In this document: piece after piece, positions 1-6,472 of the stretch
How positions within the stretch are numbered: the first letter of the stretch is position 1
How the letters are laid out: each line of letters starts with the position of its first letter
Origin: Solitalea longa
Lineage (GTDB): Bacteria; Bacteroidota; Bacteroidia; Sphingobacteriales; Sphingobacteriaceae
NCBI RefSeq assembly: GCF_002920915.1
Contig: NZ_PQVF01000012.1
Location: forward strand, 287-64,286
Length of the DNA: 64,000 nt
Direction: 5' to 3'
Translations under genes and position numbers: made by a program
The notes under the pieces: model-generated
What the model was told of the DNA's origin: nothing
Seen by the model: the letters and a program-made list of their open reading frames with translations, nothing else
The model's database searches: none

Positions 1-21
1 TACCAGCTGAGCTACGGAATC
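1..21 (-). tRNA. tRNA-Lys, 5' part only (cut by window edge)
   Basis: The first 21 bases are the reverse complement of the acceptor 5' strand, D-stem and D-loop of a tRNA. They are identical to the same part of the intact tRNA-Lys at 65-137. The anticodon lies outside the window, so the lysine identity is inferred from the identity of this segment and the tandem position. Confidence 0.75.
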
Positions 22-64
22 ATTGTTACCTTTATTTGAAACTGTGTAACTTTTCAGTTTTTAG

Positions 65-137
65 TGATCCCGCTGGGATTCGAACCCAGGACCCATACAT
101 TAAAAGTGTATTGCTCTACCAGCTGAGCTACGGAATC
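65..137 (-). tRNA. tRNA-Lys (anticodon TTT)
   Basis: The minus strand folds into a standard 73-nt cloverleaf. It has a 7-bp acceptor stem (GATTCCG with CGGGATC, one G-T pair), a GCTC/GAGC D-stem, a 5-bp anticodon stem ATACA/TGTAT around loop CTTTTAA, and a CTGGG/CCCAG T-stem around TTCGAAT. The anticodon TTT reads lysine codons. The discriminator base is A, and CCA is not encoded, which is normal in this phylum. It is the only complete tRNA in the window and sits between a cut copy and a decayed copy in the same orientation. Confidence 0.96.
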
Positions 138-147
138 TAATGTTTTT

Positions 148-213
148 GATTCTTTCTTTCCGCCAGGACCCTCCCGATAAATCGGGATGCTCTACCAGCT
201 GAGCTACGGAATC
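148..213 (-). pseudogene. decayed tRNA-Lys copy with replaced anticodon arm
   Basis: The 5' 26 nt (acceptor strand, D-arm) match the intact neighbour exactly. The 17-nt anticodon arm is then replaced by the perfect palindrome TCCCGATTTATCGGGA (172-187). A shared stretch GGGTCCTGG follows, and after it similarity ends, so there is no T-arm. A GAATC at 148-152 could still pair with the first five acceptor bases, but a normal cloverleaf cannot form. The palindrome resembles short intergenic palindromes common in Bacteroidota. I read this as a tRNA pseudogene. Confidence 0.75.
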
Positions 214-329
214 TTTTCCCTGTTTAAACCATCTCTAGGGCGGTCTGTTTTGGGACTGCAAATATACAGGCTTTGATTAGTTTTGCAAACTAAATATTCA
301 GCTTTTTTTAAATTAAAATTAACTGCCTG

Positions 330-1451
330 TTATTCAGGAAAAATAAATCGATATGTAGCATGAGTTTTAGATCGGGTTGCCCCCAATGCAGCATGAATAG
401 CCTGCATTTTAGTGTTAAAATCACCTACCCATGATAGTTCCGCTTCGGTATAATGATTTTGCGGCAAAACATAAAACTGAAGTTTTCGAAACAATGCAGA
501 TTCAAGGCCGTGTTTCTGATAAGCTTGTTTGGTTCCCATCACCACCACTCGAATTCGATCCATTTTACCTCTCCATTTATAGTAAACAAATTTTAGCTTA
601 CCCCAAAGGTTAAGCTTGCCGTTCAGGTGCTTAATTATTTGGTTGGCGTCTGGTAAACAAACAATGAATGAAGCTGGTTCATTATTAATGTAGGCAAACC
701 AAATCAACTGCTCATCCATTATGGGTTTCATTTTTTCAAAACTATCCAATAAGATCTCTTTCGAAATCGGAACAAAGTTTTCAAAATCCTGCCAGGCATC
801 ATTATAGATCTCCTCAAAATCGGCTGCAAACTTATCAAACTTGTTTACGGTTAAATATTCAAATGAATAGCCCGGCTTAGCAATTACCCAGTCTGCGATT
901 TTTTCTACCCGTGCAGGAAGAGCAATAGGTATCGTATTAGTGTATTGCTGATAAGCCTGTGTAAACCCGTATGACTCAAAAAACTTTTGATAGTAAGTAG
1001 GATTGTATTGCATACCAAATGAAGGATGCACAAATCCATCGATAAGTAAGCCCCAATAGGTATCGTTTTCGCCAAAGTTGATGGGGCCATCCATCGCTTT
1101 CATTCCACGTTGAGCAAGCCAATCTTTACAGGTATTAAATAGCAGGAATGCAGCTTCTTTATTGTCGATACATTCAAAAAATCCCATTCCTCCGGTTGGA
1201 TGCTCAGATTGATATGCTTTCTTCTGATTAATAAACGCTGCCACACGACCTATAAGATTACCATTGTTATCTTTTAAAACCCATCTGGTAGCTTCTCCGA
1301 AAGAGTGAAAATTATTGCGTTTAGGGTCAAAAATAGATTCAATATCACTATCGAGTGGTCTAACCCAAACAGGATCTTTCTTGTTAATAATTACTGCAAC
1401 TTCCAGAAATTCCTTTTTCGTTTTGGCGTCTTTAACCTCAATAATAGTCAT
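330..1451 (-). CDS. GNAT-family N-acetyltransferase-like protein (YghO type)
   Basis: A 373-residue cytoplasmic protein without signal peptide. It resembles the long GNAT-related family that includes E. coli YghO: an N-terminal region with the NKKDPVWVRPLDSDIE-like segment, a central conserved FGENDTYWGLLIDGF segment (around residues 126-140), and a C-terminal acetyltransferase-like half containing a KHGLESALF segment near residue 315. Acetyl-CoA binding is expected from the family; the substrate is unknown. The ATG at 1451 follows a -7 box (1469-1476) by a short leader. It is transcribed alone, divergently from the thioredoxin-fold gene. Confidence 0.75.
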   Translation of the reverse strand: MTIIEVKDAKTKKEFLEVAVIINKKDPVWVRPLDSDIESIFDPKRNNFHSFGEATRWVLKDNNGNLIGRVAAFINQKKAYQSEHPTGGMGFFECIDNKEAAFLLFNTCKDWLAQRGMKAMDGPINFGENDTYWGLLIDGFVHPSFGMQYNPTYYQKFFESYGFTQAYQQYTNTIPIALPARVEKIADWVIAKPGYSFEYLTVNKFDKFAADFEEIYNDAWQDFENFVPISKEILLDSFEKMKPIMDEQLIWFAYINNEPASFIVCLPDANQIIKHLNGKLNLWGKLKFVYYKWRGKMDRIRVVVMGTKQAYQKHGLESALFRKLQFYVLPQNHYTEAELSWVGDFNTKMQAIHAALGATRSKTHATYRFIFPE

Positions 1452-1468
1452 ATAAAAATTTTAGTGTC

Positions 1469-1476
1469 CAAAAATA
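1469..1476 (-). promoter_or_regulatory. Bacteroidota -7 promoter box for the YghO-like gene
   Basis: On the minus strand the sequence reads TATTTTTG, a full match to TAnnTTTG, and lies 17 nt before the ATG at 1451. No clear -33 TTTG is seen at the usual spacing. Confidence 0.5.
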
Positions 1477-1539
1477 TAAAATTGCTTGTGGCTTAGTTAA
1501 AAAAACAGAGATTTGTCGAAATAACCATTCAATAATCTT

Positions 1540-2061
1540 ATGATAATAGGCGACAAACTTCCGGCATTTAACCTTAAGGGAGTAGACGGAGAAATGAGCA
1601 ATCAGTATGCATATGCTGATAGATATGCGTTGTTGGTAGTATTTACGAATAATAGCTGCCCGGTAGCTGTAGCATATCGCAATCGGATTAAAAATATGCT
1701 TAAGCGTTATGAAGAGGATAATTTGGGTATCATTCGAATCAACTCGACAACAAAAAACAGTGAAGCTGAATCGTTGGAAGAGATGAAAAAAATGTATGAT
1801 GAATTAAAACTCCCTCATTTGTATTTAATGGACGAGGATCAAACGGTGGCTAAGGCATTTGGTGCTACTAAAGTTCCCGAAGCATTTTTATTTAACTCAA
1901 AAAGAGAGTTGGTTTATAAAGGTGCAATAGATGATAGTTGGGAAAATGAAAATATGGTTACCAGGGTCTACCTGGAAGATGCCATTGAATCAGCACTGGA
2001 CGGCATTGACGTAGATTATCCGGAAATCGATCCAATTGGGTGCGATATCATATTAAGTTAA
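1540..2061 (+). CDS. thioredoxin-fold protein, AhpC/TSA-like, single active-site Cys
   Basis: A 173-residue cytoplasmic protein of the thioredoxin/AhpC-TSA superfamily. The N-terminus (GDKLPAFNLKGVDG) and the strand LLVVFTNNSCPVAVAYRNR fit the 'thioredoxin family protein' group whose usual motif is CNHCPY. Here the first cysteine is Asn, so only Cys in NNSCP remains. A cis-Pro segment (TKVPEAFLF) and a C-terminal PIGCDI motif, typical of the group, follow. It may act as a one-cysteine peroxidase or thiol protein, possibly with the C-terminal cysteine as partner; this is inference. A terminator lies about 60 nt downstream. Confidence 0.8.
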   Translation: MIIGDKLPAFNLKGVDGEMSNQYAYADRYALLVVFTNNSCPVAVAYRNRIKNMLKRYEEDNLGIIRINSTTKNSEAESLEEMKKMYDELKLPHLYLMDEDQTVAKAFGATKVPEAFLFNSKRELVYKGAIDDSWENENMVTRVYLEDAIESALDGIDVDYPEIDPIGCDIILS

Positions 2062-2123
2062 ACGTTGGATATCAACTATAGCTTGACTTACTTGGGTTGC
2101 TAAGATTGGAGTTCCAGTATAAT

Positions 2124-2159
2124 AAAAAAGGTTGTCAGAATCATTTGGCAACCTTTTTT
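2124..2159 (+). terminator. Rho-independent terminator after the thioredoxin-fold gene
   Basis: An 11-bp perfect stem AAAAAAGGTTG / CAACCTTTTTT with a 14-nt loop ends in a run of T. The symmetrical A and T flanks would let it work on both strands. Confidence 0.85.
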
Positions 2160-2218
2160 GTTTAGCTAATCTATATAAAACCTAATTACCGGATGGTTTA
2201 GGTTTAAATTTCATAACT

Positions 2219-2274: not shown

Positions 2275-4164
2275 TTAAAAAGTTATTGTTTTTCCGGATC
2301 CACCTGCCGCAATAAAGTCATTAATTGCTTTTAACTCTGCAGCTGTAAGTGTTGATGGCGCTGTTTTTCCTTGGTACGGAGCATTTACAAAAGGTTCATA
2401 ACTATATTTACAGCCTCCGTCACAATCAGATAACGATCCTGTATAACTGGTTTCTGTGCGGTCAATGGTAGTTAATTTTTCATTCCGAGCCACATATAAG
2501 GGTCCGAATTCAAATTTTTTTAGAATGTTATTACCTAAGATATACTCCCATCCTCCTCCTCCAAAAGTAAGTTGGGGATCTCTTATGTCTGCAACCCACA
2601 AACTTCCAATTATATTGGGTATTCCGGGCAGGATGCTCTTTGCATAAAAAACGGAGTTGTAACCAAGGGTTTTCTCGTTATAATAAAAATATACATAGAA
2701 AGATCCCTTTTTGCCTAAATCAGGTCCTCCTTGTATCAGACTCAAAGCAGAAGGCATTGCCAATGTATAGTCACCAGCATACCAACCCAAACCATCTTTG
2801 GGTTCATATTTCGCCGTAATTTTTTTTCGATTGGAGATACCCATTGCCGGGTAGCTGTATACAACATCAAAAGTAAAAGTATGTATATCTTTAACGTTAC
2901 CAGTAGCTGTAATTTTCAAGATATCTGCCACTGTGGTATAAGTTATTTTGATTTCAGGGTCAGAAACATTTTCAATTTTGATAAGATTGGCCGGGCTATT
3001 ACGAGTTTCCTCAGTTGGCGTTGTGGCTATACCGCTGGCAAGTTCAATCAATTTTGGATCACCCGAAAACCATGATTTAATTCTGTTTACGGCTTTAACC
3101 ACCCCATTATAGATGGATGTGGCTTTATTGGTAACCAACACAATATTTCTAAAAAATGCATTTGTGCTCTTTTCATCAGCAATTGAAACACCTTGATAGG
3201 CAGAGCTTACATTAAAAGAACGTTGAACACCTGTTTGAAAAACAAATTCAGGTTCTGCCGTAGTAACCGCTTCAGCCGTTTTTGTGTTGCTGTTTTGTCC
3301 GCTTAAGAGGATTTTAAGATTGATTACTTGCTTATTCTGTCCATTGTAAGCAAATAATACTTTCTTATAATCCAACGCTTTTTTGAAGGTGTAAAAAGAA
3401 GCTCCTAAGCCAGCAAGTCCCAGTACTTGTGTATAACCCGTAGGAGCAGCAATTGCCTCTGCAGAAAGGGCCAAAAGAGCCATCGACTCAGTTGCAAGCC
3501 CTACATAAGCAATAACCCCTGCACGATATTCCTGATCACTGTTGAATTTTGCAGGCACATCAATACCTAATCCATTGGTGCTTTTGGTATGAATTGCCTG
3601 TTCCGAAATATCAGGCATGTCAAAGTTTAATTTTTGAAGAACAAAAGCCAGTTCCTTCTTTTCTGTATCAGTTAAAGCTGCATATTTAGCCTTAAAAGTT
3701 TCTTTAAATACGGTTAAGGTATTGGCATCTTCAGTGCTTGAAACATCGGTAATGGCATCATCAAGTTGAGCCAAATAAGCATCTTTAACCTGGTCGGGAT
3801 TGGTAATAGGTGAATAAGCTGAAATAGTTAAGGTCGGTTTCTCCTTAGCTCCAACAATAGAAAAGTCTAAATTCAACTGACCTGAAGGAATAACGGGAAC
3901 TAAAAATGCAGCTGTTGTATCATCAATTTTAGTTAAGGTGACTTTTTTCTCCCCAATCAACATTTCCCATGATGATTTATCTTTTGGTAGTTCATAGTTT
4001 ACTTTTACCAGGTCTCCAGGAGTAACAGTGGTTTTATCAAGTACTAAAATGTTTTCTTTTGGTATTGCAGGGTCAGAATCTCCCTTTTTACATGCAATGG
4101 GTAAGAAAAGAATAAATATGATGACGAGAGAGCAAAGCTTGAATGAAAGTAAGTTTTTTTGCAT
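2275..4164 (-). CDS. large lipoprotein of unknown function, paralogue A
   Basis: A 629-residue predicted lipoprotein: a short basic/hydrophobic signal ends in the lipobox PIAC (Cys at about 25), followed by KKGDSD. Residues about 38-115 look like an IPT/Ig-like beta domain (ILVLDKTTVTPGDLVKVNY). A mostly helical middle follows, with two hydrophobic stretches near residues 215-260 that could be membrane-active or buried helices. A second Ig-like region (about 395-455) ends at KKITAK. The last ~170 residues (starting GLGWYAGDYTL) contain an aromatic/Gly-rich domain and an ELKAINDFIAAG tail. The first ~455 residues are closely similar to the adjacent gene at 4586-6280, while the C-termini are unrelated. 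The function is not recognised; an outer-membrane or periplasm-facing location is inferred. Confidence 0.8.
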   Translation of the reverse strand: MQKNLLSFKLCSLVIIFILFLPIACKKGDSDPAIPKENILVLDKTTVTPGDLVKVNYELPKDKSSWEMLIGEKKVTLTKIDDTTAAFLVPVIPSGQLNLDFSIVGAKEKPTLTISAYSPITNPDQVKDAYLAQLDDAITDVSSTEDANTLTVFKETFKAKYAALTDTEKKELAFVLQKLNFDMPDISEQAIHTKSTNGLGIDVPAKFNSDQEYRAGVIAYVGLATESMALLALSAEAIAAPTGYTQVLGLAGLGASFYTFKKALDYKKVLFAYNGQNKQVINLKILLSGQNSNTKTAEAVTTAEPEFVFQTGVQRSFNVSSAYQGVSIADEKSTNAFFRNIVLVTNKATSIYNGVVKAVNRIKSWFSGDPKLIELASGIATTPTEETRNSPANLIKIENVSDPEIKITYTTVADILKITATGNVKDIHTFTFDVVYSYPAMGISNRKKITAKYEPKDGLGWYAGDYTLAMPSALSLIQGGPDLGKKGSFYVYFYYNEKTLGYNSVFYAKSILPGIPNIIGSLWVADIRDPQLTFGGGGWEYILGNNILKKFEFGPLYVARNEKLTTIDRTETSYTGSLSDCDGGCKYSYEPFVNAPYQGKTAPSTLTAAELKAINDFIAAGGSGKTITF

Positions 4165-4227
4165 ATCAACAGGTTTATTTTTTAAGTATATCGAGTGGCT
4201 AAAATGGATACAAATATTTGATTACGA

Positions 4228-4247
4228 AATACCTGTTACTAGGTAAA
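4228..4247. promoter_or_regulatory. operator-like inverted repeat upstream of lipoprotein A
   Basis: The sequence AATACC-N8-GGTAAA lies about 65 nt before the start of the gene at 4164. An equivalent AATACC-N8-GGTATT lies at the same place before paralogue B (6346-6365). Shared spacing and position, with partly different bases between, suggest a conserved binding site. The binding protein is unknown. Confidence 0.35.
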
Positions 4248-4290
4248 TTGTAAAATATTTAAAATAGGACTGTTTAGTCAGTCTGTAAGA

Positions 4291-4328
4291 AAAAGAGCTT
4301 CGATCATTAAATAGATCGAAGCTCTTTT
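4291..4328 (-). terminator. orphan terminator beside the relic 3' end
   Basis: A 15-bp perfect stem AAAAGAGCTTCGATC with loop ATTAAATA. It is a near copy of the terminator of lipoprotein A (2219-2256) and sits just past the stop codon of the relic tail at 4354-4425. It therefore looks like the original terminator of paralogue B before its 3' end was replaced. Confidence 0.7.
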
Positions 4329-4353
4329 AAGATCATTAATTCATCTGTACCTA

Positions 4354-4425
4354 TTAAATAGTTATTGTAGTTAAACTTCCATTAGCAATAAAGTCATTAA
4401 TTGCATTTAACTCCACAACTTTTGA
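4354..4425 (-). pseudogene. relic C-terminal tail of a lipoprotein-A-like gene
   Basis: The minus strand encodes SKVVELNAINDFIANGSLT-TITI and then a stop. This lines up with the last ~24 residues of lipoprotein A (AAELKAINDFIAAGGSGKTITF). Upstream (higher coordinates) the frame is not continued into the neighbouring gene: paralogue B already ended at 4586, with its own terminator between. I interpret it as the left-over 3' end of paralogue B after domain replacement, or of a third lost copy. Confidence 0.7.
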
Positions 4426-4479
4426 GTCTGCTCGGGTTTTGGGGCATAATTAATGGTTGGTAGTATGAAGAAAAAGAAA

Positions 4480-4515
4480 AAGGGTGACCGGAACTTTGTT
4501 AGGCCGGTCACCCTT
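4480..4515 (-). terminator. terminator of lipoprotein gene B
   Basis: A perfect 12-bp stem, AAGGGTGACCGG and its complement, with a 12-nt loop. On the minus strand it is followed by a T-rich tract and lies about 70 nt past the stop at 4586. It is unlike the terminators of gene A and the relic, in line with a new 3' end for gene B. Confidence 0.8.
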
Positions 4516-4585
4516 CTTTATTTTGGTAGAGGGGTAATTTCTCGTCTCCTCTTTTCGACTATCAATTATTGATGAGTACTATTAA

Positions 4586-6280
4586 TTATTGTCTGGTATA
4601 GGTTTCTAAATAAGAACCATGATTATCCGTGAATCTCAACTTTAAGGTTGTACCTGAAAGTAGAATAACCTGGGCGGATTGCGGACTTCCAATTACGTTT
4701 ACCGATAAATTAAGCGTTCCGTTGTTTAAGGTATAAGTTCCCGAATATTCCGACTCGAGCTGGCAAGCACCATTAAATGGCTTATGAGACTTTCCAACAT
4801 ACGTGTTTTTTGAAGAGTTGAAACTTAACGTATTATTACCACTGCAAGGTGTGATAATGTCCGTTTGATTGCTTTCATCAACTTCAGAGATTAATTTCCA
4901 GGTTCCATTCAAAGAAGGATTATTTAATTTGGCGGTAATTTTTTTCCGTTTGCTAATACCCATTGCCGGGTAGCTGTAAACCACATCAAAGGTAAAGGTT
5001 TGATCTTCTTTAATAGTGCCTGTGGCTGTGATTGTTAAAATGTCTCCGTTCGCTGTTGTACTCAATTTAATGGCTGAATTGGAAACGTTCTCAATTTTAA
5101 TCAGATTGGCAGGGCTGTTTCTAATTTCAGAAGCTGGAGTAGCCGGTATTCCACTTGCAAGTTCAATCAATTTTGGATCTCCCGAAAACCATGATTTAAC
5201 CTTGTTTACCACTTTAACCACCCCATTATAGATGGAAGTTGCTTTATTGGTAACTAAAACTATTTTTCTAAAGAAAGCATTAGTACTCTTTTCATCAGCA
5301 ATTGAAACACCTTGGTAAGCTGAACTAACATTAAATGAACGTTGAACACCAGTTTCAAAAACAATTTCAGGGTCTGCAGTAGTAACTGCTTCAACCACTT
5401 TTGTACTGTTGTTTTGGCCACTTAAAAGGATTTTAAGATTGATTACCTCTTTGTTTTGGCCGTTATACAGGAATAATACCCGTTTATAATCCAGCGCTTT
5501 TTTGAATGTATAAAAAGTAGCCGCTAAGCCTGCGAGGCCTAATGCCTGTGTAAAACCTGTAGGGGCAGCAATTGCTTCAGCAGAAACGGTCAAAAGAGCT
5601 ATTGACTCGGTTACAAGTGCTACATAACCAATTACCCCTGCGCGATACTCCTGATCAGTATCGATTCTTGAAGGCACATCAATTAAATCGTTGGTGCTTT
5701 TACTATGAATTGCCTGTTCTGCAATATCAGGCATATCAAACTTTAATTTTTGAAGAACAAAAGCTAATTCCTTCTTTTCTGTATCAGTTAAAGCTGCATA
5801 TTTAGCCTTAAAAGTTTCTTTAAATACAGTTAAGGTATTGGCATCTTCAATGCTTGAAACATCGGCAATAGCATTGTCAAGTTCAGCTAAATAAGCATCT
5901 TTAACCTGTTCTGGATTGGAAATAGGTGAATATGCTGAAATAGTTAAGTCCGGTTTCTCCTTAGCTCCAACAATAGAAAAGTCTAAATTCAACTGACCTG
6001 AAGGAATAACGGGAACTAAAAATGCAGCTGTTGTATCGTCAATTTTAGTTAAGGTGACGTTCTTTGCTCCAATCAATATCTCCCATGATGATTTATCTTT
6101 TGGTAGTTCATAGTTTACAGTAACCAGATCTCCCGGGGTAACGGTGGTTTTATCAAGAACCAAAATGTTTTCTTTGGGAATTTCCGGGTCGGAATCGCCT
6201 TTTTTACATGCTATAGGTAAGAGGAAAGTAAATAGAAAAACGAGAGAGCTGAGCTTAAATGAAAGTAAGTTTTTTGTCAT
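4586..6280 (-). CDS. large chimeric lipoprotein, paralogue B, with lipocalin-like C-terminus
   Basis: A 564-residue predicted lipoprotein (lipobox PIAC, then KKGDSDP). Up to the segment KKITAK (about residue 455) it parallels paralogue A almost residue for residue: the Ig-like N-terminal domain, the long middle region and the second beta region. After that it switches to a ~105-residue domain beginning LNGTWKLISEVDES and containing YSGTYTLNNGTLNLS. This resembles the lipocalin-like domains often found in Bacteroidota lipoproteins. The function is unknown. The gene lies head-to-tail behind paralogue A, with similar upstream sequence, which points to a tandem duplication that included the promoter. 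Confidence 0.8.
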   Translation of the reverse strand: MTKNLLSFKLSSLVFLFTFLLPIACKKGDSDPEIPKENILVLDKTTVTPGDLVTVNYELPKDKSSWEILIGAKNVTLTKIDDTTAAFLVPVIPSGQLNLDFSIVGAKEKPDLTISAYSPISNPEQVKDAYLAELDNAIADVSSIEDANTLTVFKETFKAKYAALTDTEKKELAFVLQKLKFDMPDIAEQAIHSKSTNDLIDVPSRIDTDQEYRAGVIGYVALVTESIALLTVSAEAIAAPTGFTQALGLAGLAATFYTFKKALDYKRVLFLYNGQNKEVINLKILLSGQNNSTKVVEAVTTADPEIVFETGVQRSFNVSSAYQGVSIADEKSTNAFFRKIVLVTNKATSIYNGVVKVVNKVKSWFSGDPKLIELASGIPATPASEIRNSPANLIKIENVSNSAIKLSTTANGDILTITATGTIKEDQTFTFDVVYSYPAMGISKRKKITAKLNNPSLNGTWKLISEVDESNQTDIITPCSGNNTLSFNSSKNTYVGKSHKPFNGACQLESEYSGTYTLNNGTLNLSVNVIGSPQSAQVILLSGTTLKLRFTDNHGSYLETYTRQ

Positions 6281-6345
6281 ATTAACAGATTGGTTTATAA
6301 AAGTATATCCAAGGGGCGAAAATGCCTACAAATATTTAATTACGA

Positions 6346-6365
6346 AATACCCATAAGTAGGTATT
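6346..6365. promoter_or_regulatory. operator-like inverted repeat upstream of lipoprotein B
   Basis: AATACC-N8-GGTATT forms a perfect 6-bp inverted repeat about 65 nt before the ATG at 6280. It matches the arrangement before paralogue A (4228-4247). Between it and the gene both copies share TACAAATATTT, whose minus strand AAATATTTG is one base from the -7 consensus. Confidence 0.35.
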
Positions 6366-6472
6366 ATTGTAAAGGGGGTTATTAATAGAAAATTTGTGGT
6401 CAGGAGGATCAAAAAAGAGGGGAGCCCTTGTAAAAGGGGAAGAGTAATATTGGGGTTATTCCCTTTTAATTC

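What the first reader, a model, noticed from the sequence alone, without database searches (positions are those of the whole stretch)
2275..6280. Tandem lipoprotein paralogues with an abrupt C-terminal domain swap
The two adjacent genes share about 455 residues, often near identical, including signal and lipobox, and then diverge completely right after KKITAK. One carries an aromatic/Gly-rich tail, the other a lipocalin-like domain. The upstream regions are also similar. This suggests a recent tandem duplication followed by replacement of the exposed C-terminal module, a way to diversify a surface lipoprotein. The long shared core, with hydrophobic stretches in the middle, is not a family I recognise.
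Basis: partly seen in the sequence, partly recalled or inferred. Interest (0 to 1): 0.68.

Follow-up and report, generated by a model that had tools for sequence, protein, structure and literature searches.

The report
Lipoprotein scaffold with swappable tails
Two neighbouring genes in a Solitalea bacterium encode predicted lipid-anchored proteins with nearly the same body but unrelated ends, and relatives in other bacteria show that this protein family has exchanged its ends more than once at the same joint.

Summary
Both genes lie on the minus strand: B (6280-4586, 564 aa) and A (4164-2275, 629 aa). They share 83% DNA identity over 1,453 bp and 84% protein identity over the core; after KKITAK the tails align no better than shuffles. 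B's tail is Lipocalin_4 (E 1e-11); A's has no family. Sister species Solitalea agri carries A, B and a third copy A' in tandem. Core dS is 0.12-0.22 between orthologues, 0.65 between A and B, so both forms predate the species split. Nineteen codons of A' survive between B and A. Two congeners lack the genes at this place. The core recurs in other families of the class (12 of 395 genomes) with other tails. A second pair shows the same break (66% core, unrelated tails), and similar tails sit on distant cores; one clade is rejected for three of four tail groups tested. Best reading: an undescribed lipoprotein scaffold with an exchangeable C-terminal, probably ligand-binding, module. Function is inferred; the AlphaFold core model was poor.

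The parts
4586..6280 (-). Gene B: 564-aa lipoprotein, core + Lipocalin_4 tail
   Evidence: ORF; Pfam
4928..6280 (-). Core of B (451 aa, ends at KKITAK)
4586..4927 (-). Tail of B: lipocalin-like domain (113 aa + stop)
   Evidence: PF13648 45.6 bits, cut-off 22.4
2275..4164 (-). Gene A: 629-aa lipoprotein, core + A-type tail
   Evidence: ORF; 0 Pfam and 0 NCBIfam families at E up to 1
2809..4164 (-). Core of A (452 aa): signal peptide and lipobox Cys25, Ig-like (TIG-like) about 40-118, helical about 120-376, Ig-like about 390-452
   Evidence: Cys25 invariant in 13 of 13 rows and 14 of 14; layout from a low-confidence AlphaFold model and sub-threshold TIG matches in relatives
3343..3537 (-). Hydrophobic helical stretch of A (residues about 210-274)
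   Evidence: predicted helices 210-238 and 243-274, low confidence; best 19-residue hydropathy 1.68 at residue 215
2275..2808 (-). Tail of A: A-type domain (177 aa + stop)
   Evidence: free-standing relatives in 3 genomes of another genus; on a distant core in L121, E 7.6e-11 with Z set to 100000
6281..6373 (-). Upstream region of B shared with A
   Evidence: start of the 1,453-bp match
4165..4254 (-). Upstream region of A shared with B
   Evidence: start of the 1,453-bp match
4354..4413 (-). Relic: last 19 codons and stop of a lost third copy (A'); joined to B's downstream flank at a shared GAGTTAA
4478..4515 (-). Inverted repeat with T run after B (terminator-like)
   Evidence: read directly in the sequence; loop of 12, not listed by the scan, which allows 3-8
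4291..4328 (-). Inverted repeat with T run after the relic, matching the one after A
   Evidence: read directly in the sequence; not listed by the scan

Best explanation
A and B are two members of an undescribed family of Bacteroidota lipoproteins built as a conserved scaffold with an exchangeable end. The scaffold is a lipobox, a TIG/Ig-like domain, a helical domain with a long hydrophobic stretch, and a second Ig-like domain. After the second Ig-like domain comes a fixed joint (KKITAK here), behind which a module of about 100-250 residues is plugged in: lipocalin-like, A-type, Big_1 plus a further domain, Fib_succ_major, and others. SHOWN by sequence: the shared core, the joint, unrelated tails on close cores in two separate pairs, similar tails on distant cores, dN/dS well under 1 in both genes, and rearrangement of the tandem array after the two Solitalea species split. 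INFERRED: the domain layout (weak model), anchoring in the outer membrane, display of the tail, ligand binding by the tail, and the benefit (two or three copies with different tails widen the range of ligands). Likely genetic route, also inferred: tandem copies give homology for recombination and conversion in the core, and joins at short homologies (as the 7-bp join at the relic) can put a foreign module behind the joint.
For: Break and tail classes. Second pair L027/L120: core 66%, last 60 core residues 87%, tail score reached by 148 of 500 shuffles. Similar tails on distant cores: L122 with L070 (core 25%, tail 43%), L121 with the Solitalea A-type (core 23-26%, tail 27-33%), L027 with L080 (core without signal, tail 40%). 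One clade rejected: A-type incl. L121 p 7e-5; L122+L029+L070+L071 p 3e-15; L027+L080 p 6e-4 (groups formed from tail scores). dN/dS of the A and B orthologue pairs 0.11-0.29 in core and tail. Orthologues and third copy in S. agri. No copies at the same place in two congeners. Binding-module inference: Lipocalin_4 and Fib_succ_major (E 3.9e-36 and 3.5e-37 in L126 and L124); the latter is reported at the C-terminus of a predicted lipoprotein that is a putative target of a diversity-generating retroelement (PMC4159848, passages seen).
Against: No ligand, localisation or expression data. The core's fold is unresolved (pLDDT 48, pTM 0.27). L124+L126 (Fib_succ_major) do not reject one clade (p 0.316), so that group is no evidence of exchange; the Big_1 group was not tested. 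Eight of 26 tails are singletons whose difference may be divergence rather than exchange. Some pairs show core and tail diverging together (L029/L070/L071; most pairs of the Big_1 group L021/L023/L026/L028). Within Solitalea the order of events is unresolved, and identity thins out towards the break.
Confidence: 0.6

Rival explanations
1. Old paralogues with different tails whose cores were made alike by gene conversion. The tail difference is ancient; the 84% core similarity reflects homogenisation that fades near the heterologous tails.
For: Identity of A to B is 95% and 93% at columns 360-600 and falls to 75% and 69% near the break; both forms predate the species split.
Against: The 60 core residues at the break are still 73% identical, so the two 3' core ends share a fairly near ancestor anyway; A and A' share tail type as well as core.
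Confidence: 0.22
2. Polymorphic effector: the hydrophobic helical region inserts into a neighbour's membrane or delivers the tail, and the tail is a toxin or a targeting domain. The Amoebophilus APD1/APD2 effectors (lipobox, constant N-terminus, variable C-terminus) are a precedent.
For: Constant N-terminus with variable C-terminus; free-standing A-type ORFs without an evident signal peptide; hydrophobic stretch with best 19-mer 1.23-2.16 in 25 of 25 family ORFs tested, without a control set; APD1/APD2 as described in PMC3482391 (passages seen).
Against: No toxin family among the Pfam and NCBIfam hits and no defence family beyond a weak Csm3 match (E 0.035, PADLOC); no ORF of 80 aa or more follows A before the convergent redoxin gene; free-standing tail ORFs have no core gene within 1.5 kb (by eye); lipocalin and Fib_succ_major are not known as toxins (recalled).
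Confidence: 0.1
3. One reading: a recent tandem duplication in this lineage followed by replacement of the tail.
For: Tandem order, long shared core, abrupt break.
Against: Both forms occur in S. agri at 94.3% and 93.5% core DNA identity; A-B dS 0.65 against 0.12-0.22 for orthologues.
Confidence: 0.04
4. No exchange at all: both tails are one calycin-like barrel that diverged beyond recognition while the core was held by selection.
For: The A-tail model is weakly barrel-like (NHBA-C3 Z 5.5, YedD Z 5.4, TbpB 4.8, nitrophorin 4.2).
Against: Such Z values are within the range the tool gives for common arrangements and the model is weak (pLDDT 60); orthologue tails evolve only 1.5 to 3.7 times faster in dN than the cores; the A-type domain is recognisable on a core from another family of the class.
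Confidence: 0.04

Closest known systems
Amoebophilus APD1/APD2 effectors (PMC3482391, passages seen)
   Same: Bacteroidetes; signal peptide and lipobox, conserved N-terminal domain, extremely polymorphic C-termini probably deployed in parallel.
   Different: Their tails are effector domains predicted to act on a eukaryotic host; the named tails here are lipocalin-like, Big_1 and Fib_succ_major. Homology of the constant parts was not tested.
Polymorphic toxins (same paper)
   Same: C-terminal module replaced by recombination, with free-standing copies of the module elsewhere.
   Different: No toxin family and no immunity gene was seen here.
Lipoproteins with C-terminal Fib_succ_major as putative retroelement targets (PMC4159848, passages seen)
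   Same: Predicted lipoprotein with a C-terminal Fib_succ_major domain; two members of this core family (L124, L126) carry that domain at the C-terminus.
   Different: There the other domain is Mfa2 and the variety comes from mutagenic retrohoming; here whole modules differ. A retroelement was not searched for.
Surface lipoproteins of the TbpB/NHBA kind (recalled)
   Same: Lipid anchor and a C-terminal small barrel; weak fold resemblance of the A tail.
   Different: No sequence match in the PDB search of the A tail; the fold resemblance is within noise.

Membership tests
Lipocalin_4 (PF13648) | score above the curated cut-off, tail of B | tested here: met
   45.6 bits against 22.4, profile 1-89 of 89
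Lipocalin_4 (PF13648) | score above the curated cut-off, tail of A | tested here: not met
   0 families at E up to 1
Signal-peptidase-II lipoprotein | hydrophobic leader followed by an invariant Cys | tested here: met
   Cys25 invariant in 13 of 13 rows and 14 of 14; no signal-peptide predictor was available
Signal-peptidase-II lipoprotein | lipidation and surface exposure | not testable with these tools
   needs fractionation or protease shaving
Polymorphic toxin | constant N-terminus with exchangeable C-terminal module | tested here: met
Polymorphic toxin | C-terminal toxin domain | tested here: not met
   no toxin family among the hits; an unnamed toxin fold is not excluded
Polymorphic toxin | adjacent immunity gene | tested here: inconclusive
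   none evident: B is followed by A, A by a convergent redoxin gene (ORFs of 80 aa or more); neighbours of 13 other members were listed but not searched against families
Polymorphic toxin | free-standing module cassettes | tested here: met
   A-type ORFs of 181-185 aa in 3 of 399 genomes, none with a core gene within 1.5 kb
Retroelement-diversified lipoprotein | nearby reverse transcriptase and template repeat | not tested
   not searched
TbpB/NHBA-type barrel lipoprotein | C-terminal eight-stranded barrel fold | tested here: inconclusive
   best Z 5.5 on a model of pLDDT 60
IPT/TIG domain (PF01833) | score above the curated cut-off, N-terminal part of the core | tested here: inconclusive
   below the cut-off of 20.9 in the four members with a match: B 12.5, A' 14.8, L121 16.5, L027 17.5

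The most novel reading that the evidence does not exclude
A Bacteroidota system in which a membrane-active lipoprotein scaffold (its hydrophobic helices insert into a target membrane) is aimed by interchangeable C-terminal recognition modules taken from free-standing domains, with tandem copies carrying different modules at once: a contact-dependent antagonism or capture device without immunity genes.
Probability: 0.1. Interest if true: 0.75.

Novelty: new variant of a known kind. Interest (0 to 1): 0.5.

Why it matters
It points to an unnamed lipoprotein family in which module exchange can be followed at three depths: between tandem copies in one genome, between sister species, and across families of a class. 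If the tails bind ligands, it is a natural plug-in display scaffold, and the fixed joint tells where to cut when the A-type module, which matches no family in the libraries searched, is studied alone.

Tried and rejected
Rejected: 'recent' duplication. Rejected: my first reading of the relic at 4413-4354 as the old tail of B (notebook); comparison with S. agri shows it is the end of the third copy A'. Not settled: whether A' was deleted behind B or B was moved onto A'; the GAGTTAA join fits both. S. agri has the order A'-A-B, the window B-relic-A.

Led nowhere: AlphaFold of full A (pLDDT 48); PDB sequence searches of the A tail (0 hits at E up to 1) and of the A1 profile (3 chains, best E 0.065); PHROGs (one hit for the core, E 0.004, function unknown); PADLOC (one weak Csm3 match to B, E 0.035); viral contigs (11 stretches matched a pattern, none encodes a relative); plasmids (no match); phages and E. 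coli collections were not searched. A donor of B's lipocalin tail was not found: 10 of 351 genomes matched, 2 of them Solitalea, best of the rest 37% identity, E 4e-4. Foldseek with the A-tail model gave no match at E 0.001 or better (best 0.18). Paper searches: looked for a description of such proteins or of Solitalea, for Fib_succ_major; only the top 4-15 rows of each were listed (none), and none was about this family. This covers an open-licence library only.

Caps and rows left out. Genome searches score only a few candidates per genome (4), so their counts are lower bounds. The 26 rows come from ORFs of 300 aa or more in 22 chosen loci plus the two window genes, kept at profile E 1e-5. 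Dropped: L026:9678-10589 (no helical core). Not given: L030 (broken into three frames), L031 (short), and L073-L079 and L081-L089, whose matches were weak or absent; three of these (L077, L082, L085) match into the helical part and may be true members. The weaker loci L112-L115 were not examined further. L118 was added by hand: HMMER's bias filter rejects it; with filters off it scores 62 bits with bias 22. Tail groups were formed by single linkage at tail z over 7. Parsimony on the tree: 8 changes for the 6 groups with two or more rows (minimum 5), 16 for all 14 groups (minimum 13); no shuffle control was run for these. In one search the core of L028 was cut too late (at 698) and included tail; the tree was rebuilt with corrected cuts. 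The p values rest on the faulty cut and are marked by call; the A'+B test was run only there.
Full report
WHAT IS THERE. Two genes on the minus strand, B (6280-4586) then A (4164-2275), lie between scpB (7452-6877; name by eye) and a convergent redoxin-like gene (1540-2061). Their DNA matches at 83.2% over 1,453 bp, from about 90 nt upstream of each ATG to the codons of KKITAK; the two tails share no DNA match. Cores are 84% identical over 451 residues. The last 60 core residues score 40 sd above the shuffle mean; the tails score 35, reached by 76 of 500 shuffles. B's tail is Lipocalin_4, 45.6 bits. A's tail and the core reach no Pfam or NCBIfam cut-off. The own genome holds these two close copies and one distant member on contig C32; the latter was not found in the other three Solitalea genomes.

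RELATIVES AT THE SAME PLACE. Of 4 genomes of the genus, the window's own included, 2 have close copies; one of the others has two short N-terminal matches elsewhere (E 2e-7 and 7e-7), which I take to be TIG-like parts only. G001 is Solitalea agri MAHUQ-68 (named record L038), hence the genus of the window. It has three tandem copies: A' (629 aa), A (627 aa), B (564 aa; 575 from an upstream TTG in the ORF list). Window B matches S. agri B at 93.9% over 1,969 bp, and window 4413-2219 matches S. agri from the end of A' through A at 91.6% over 2,198 bp. The window therefore keeps only the last 19 codons and stop of A' (4413-4354), joined to B's downstream flank at GAGTTAA. The order differs: A'-A-B in S. 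agri, B-relic-A in the window. In the other two congeners scpB and redoxin are present with no copy between them; one of these (G002) has another gene of 264 aa there.

AGE. Core DNA identity (with 100 nt upstream) is 93.5% (A/A) and 94.3% (B/B) between species, 83.1% A/B within the window. Core dS is 0.22 and 0.12 for orthologues, 0.65 for A/B, 0.49 for A'/B, 0.72 for A/A'; dN/dS is 0.11-0.29 in the orthologue pairs, tails included. Both genes thus look maintained by selection, and the tail difference predates the species split. Identity of A to B is 95% and 93% at columns 360-600, falls to 75% and 69% at columns 1200-1440, and is 85% in the last 20 columns. A' has an A-type tail (49-51% to A) but a core nearer to B (85.7-86.1%) than to A (82.1-83.6%). 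Tests reject neither A+A' nor A'+B as one clade (p 0.346 and 0.222; A+A' p 0.52), so the direction of the exchange is open.

THE CORE FAMILY. The core was found in 13 of 399 genomes of the family with the single protein and in 12 of 395 of the class with a core-only profile; 50 of 400 of the order matched a profile that included tails, many of them by short N-terminal or Big_1-like stretches only. Several hits in each count are short. Cys25 and Pro90 are invariant in 13 of 13 rows and 14 of 14. The best hydrophobic 19-mer is 1.23-2.16 in 25 of 25 family ORFs tested (22 of them at 1.6 or more), starting at residues 214-310 in 24 and at 318 in L126; the core-less L026:9678-10589 has 0.95; L118 was not tested and there was no control set. 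By eye, no partner gene recurs next to 13 members of other genomes.

TAILS. Named tails: Lipocalin_4 in B, just under the cut-off in L080 (21.6 against 22.4) and weak in L021; Big_1 above the cut-off in L021 and L023 and just under it in L026 and L028; Fib_succ_major in L124 and L126. L025's tail looks DUF1566-like by eye (recalled, no hit). Of ten tails or tail-like proteins scanned alone, L080 alone gave a Lipocalin_4 match. All 325 pairs of 26 rows were compared; those with tail z over 7 or core z over 12 were printed. Near cores with unrelated tails: A/B, and L027/L120 (66% core, tail z 0.5), from genomes of different families, breaking at the homologous place; also L122 against L027 and L120 (core 37-40%). 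Distant cores with similar tails: L122/L070 (25% and 43%), L122/L071 (23% and 41%), L121/Solitalea A-type (23-26% and 27-33%), L124/L126 (24% and 57%), L027/L080 (no core signal, 40%). Holding each such group together as one clade is rejected for the A-type (p 7e-5), the L122 group (p 3e-15) and L027+L080 (p 6e-4), not for L124+L126 (p 0.316); the Big_1 group was not tested. The A-type domain also stands alone as 181-185-aa ORFs without an evident signal peptide in 3 of 399 genomes, all of one other genus. Pairs that diverge together exist too: L029/L070/L071, and pairs of the Big_1 group.

HOW IT PROBABLY WORKS. Shown: lipobox Cys, fixed joint, exchange of modules, dN/dS under 1. Inferred: outer-membrane anchoring, outward display, ligand binding by the tail. 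The inference rests on what the named tails are: lipocalin-like domains usually bind small ligands (recalled), and Fib_succ_major is reported at the C-terminus of a predicted lipoprotein that is a putative retroelement target (PMC4159848, passages). The role of the hydrophobic helices is open: buried in the fold, or membrane-inserting. AlphaFold did not settle it. The A-tail model (pLDDT 60, pTM 0.67) is weakly like small barrels of lipoproteins (Z 5.5 at best), within the noise the tool warns of; Foldseek had no match at E 0.001 or better.

COMPARISON. The design is like the Amoebophilus APD1/APD2 effectors and polymorphic toxins (PMC3482391, passages), but no toxin domain or immunity gene was seen, so I do not file it there. 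The paper searches listed nothing about this family.

VERDICT.

Noticed in passing
window 61-2163 (tRNA-Lys, acyltransferase-like gene, redoxin): This block is inverted in Solitalea agri (L020 13799-15934) relative to the window and to the two congeners without the array (L092, L093).
   Followed up: partly
window 1-24 and 188-216: Partial matches to the tRNA-Lys gene at 64-137 (the first may be a gene cut by the window's start); S. agri has two complete tRNA-Lys genes here.
   Followed up: partly
L118 262-2223 (contig C32 of the window's genome): A distant third member of the core family, 653 aa, not found in the other three Solitalea genomes; its tail is unassigned. Membership rests on 62 bits with a high bias correction.
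   Followed up: partly
L030 6560-8829: A family member split over three reading frames (a broken gene); by eye its tail resembles that of L028.
   Followed up: no
L026 9678-10589: A 303-aa lipoprotein two genes downstream of a full member, resembling the family profile in the signal peptide and in its C-terminal half but without the helical core.
   Followed up: no
L034 1423-1980, L035 1474-2031, L036 1441-1986: Free-standing A-type domain proteins without an evident signal peptide in three genomes of one genus; function unknown.
   Followed up: partly
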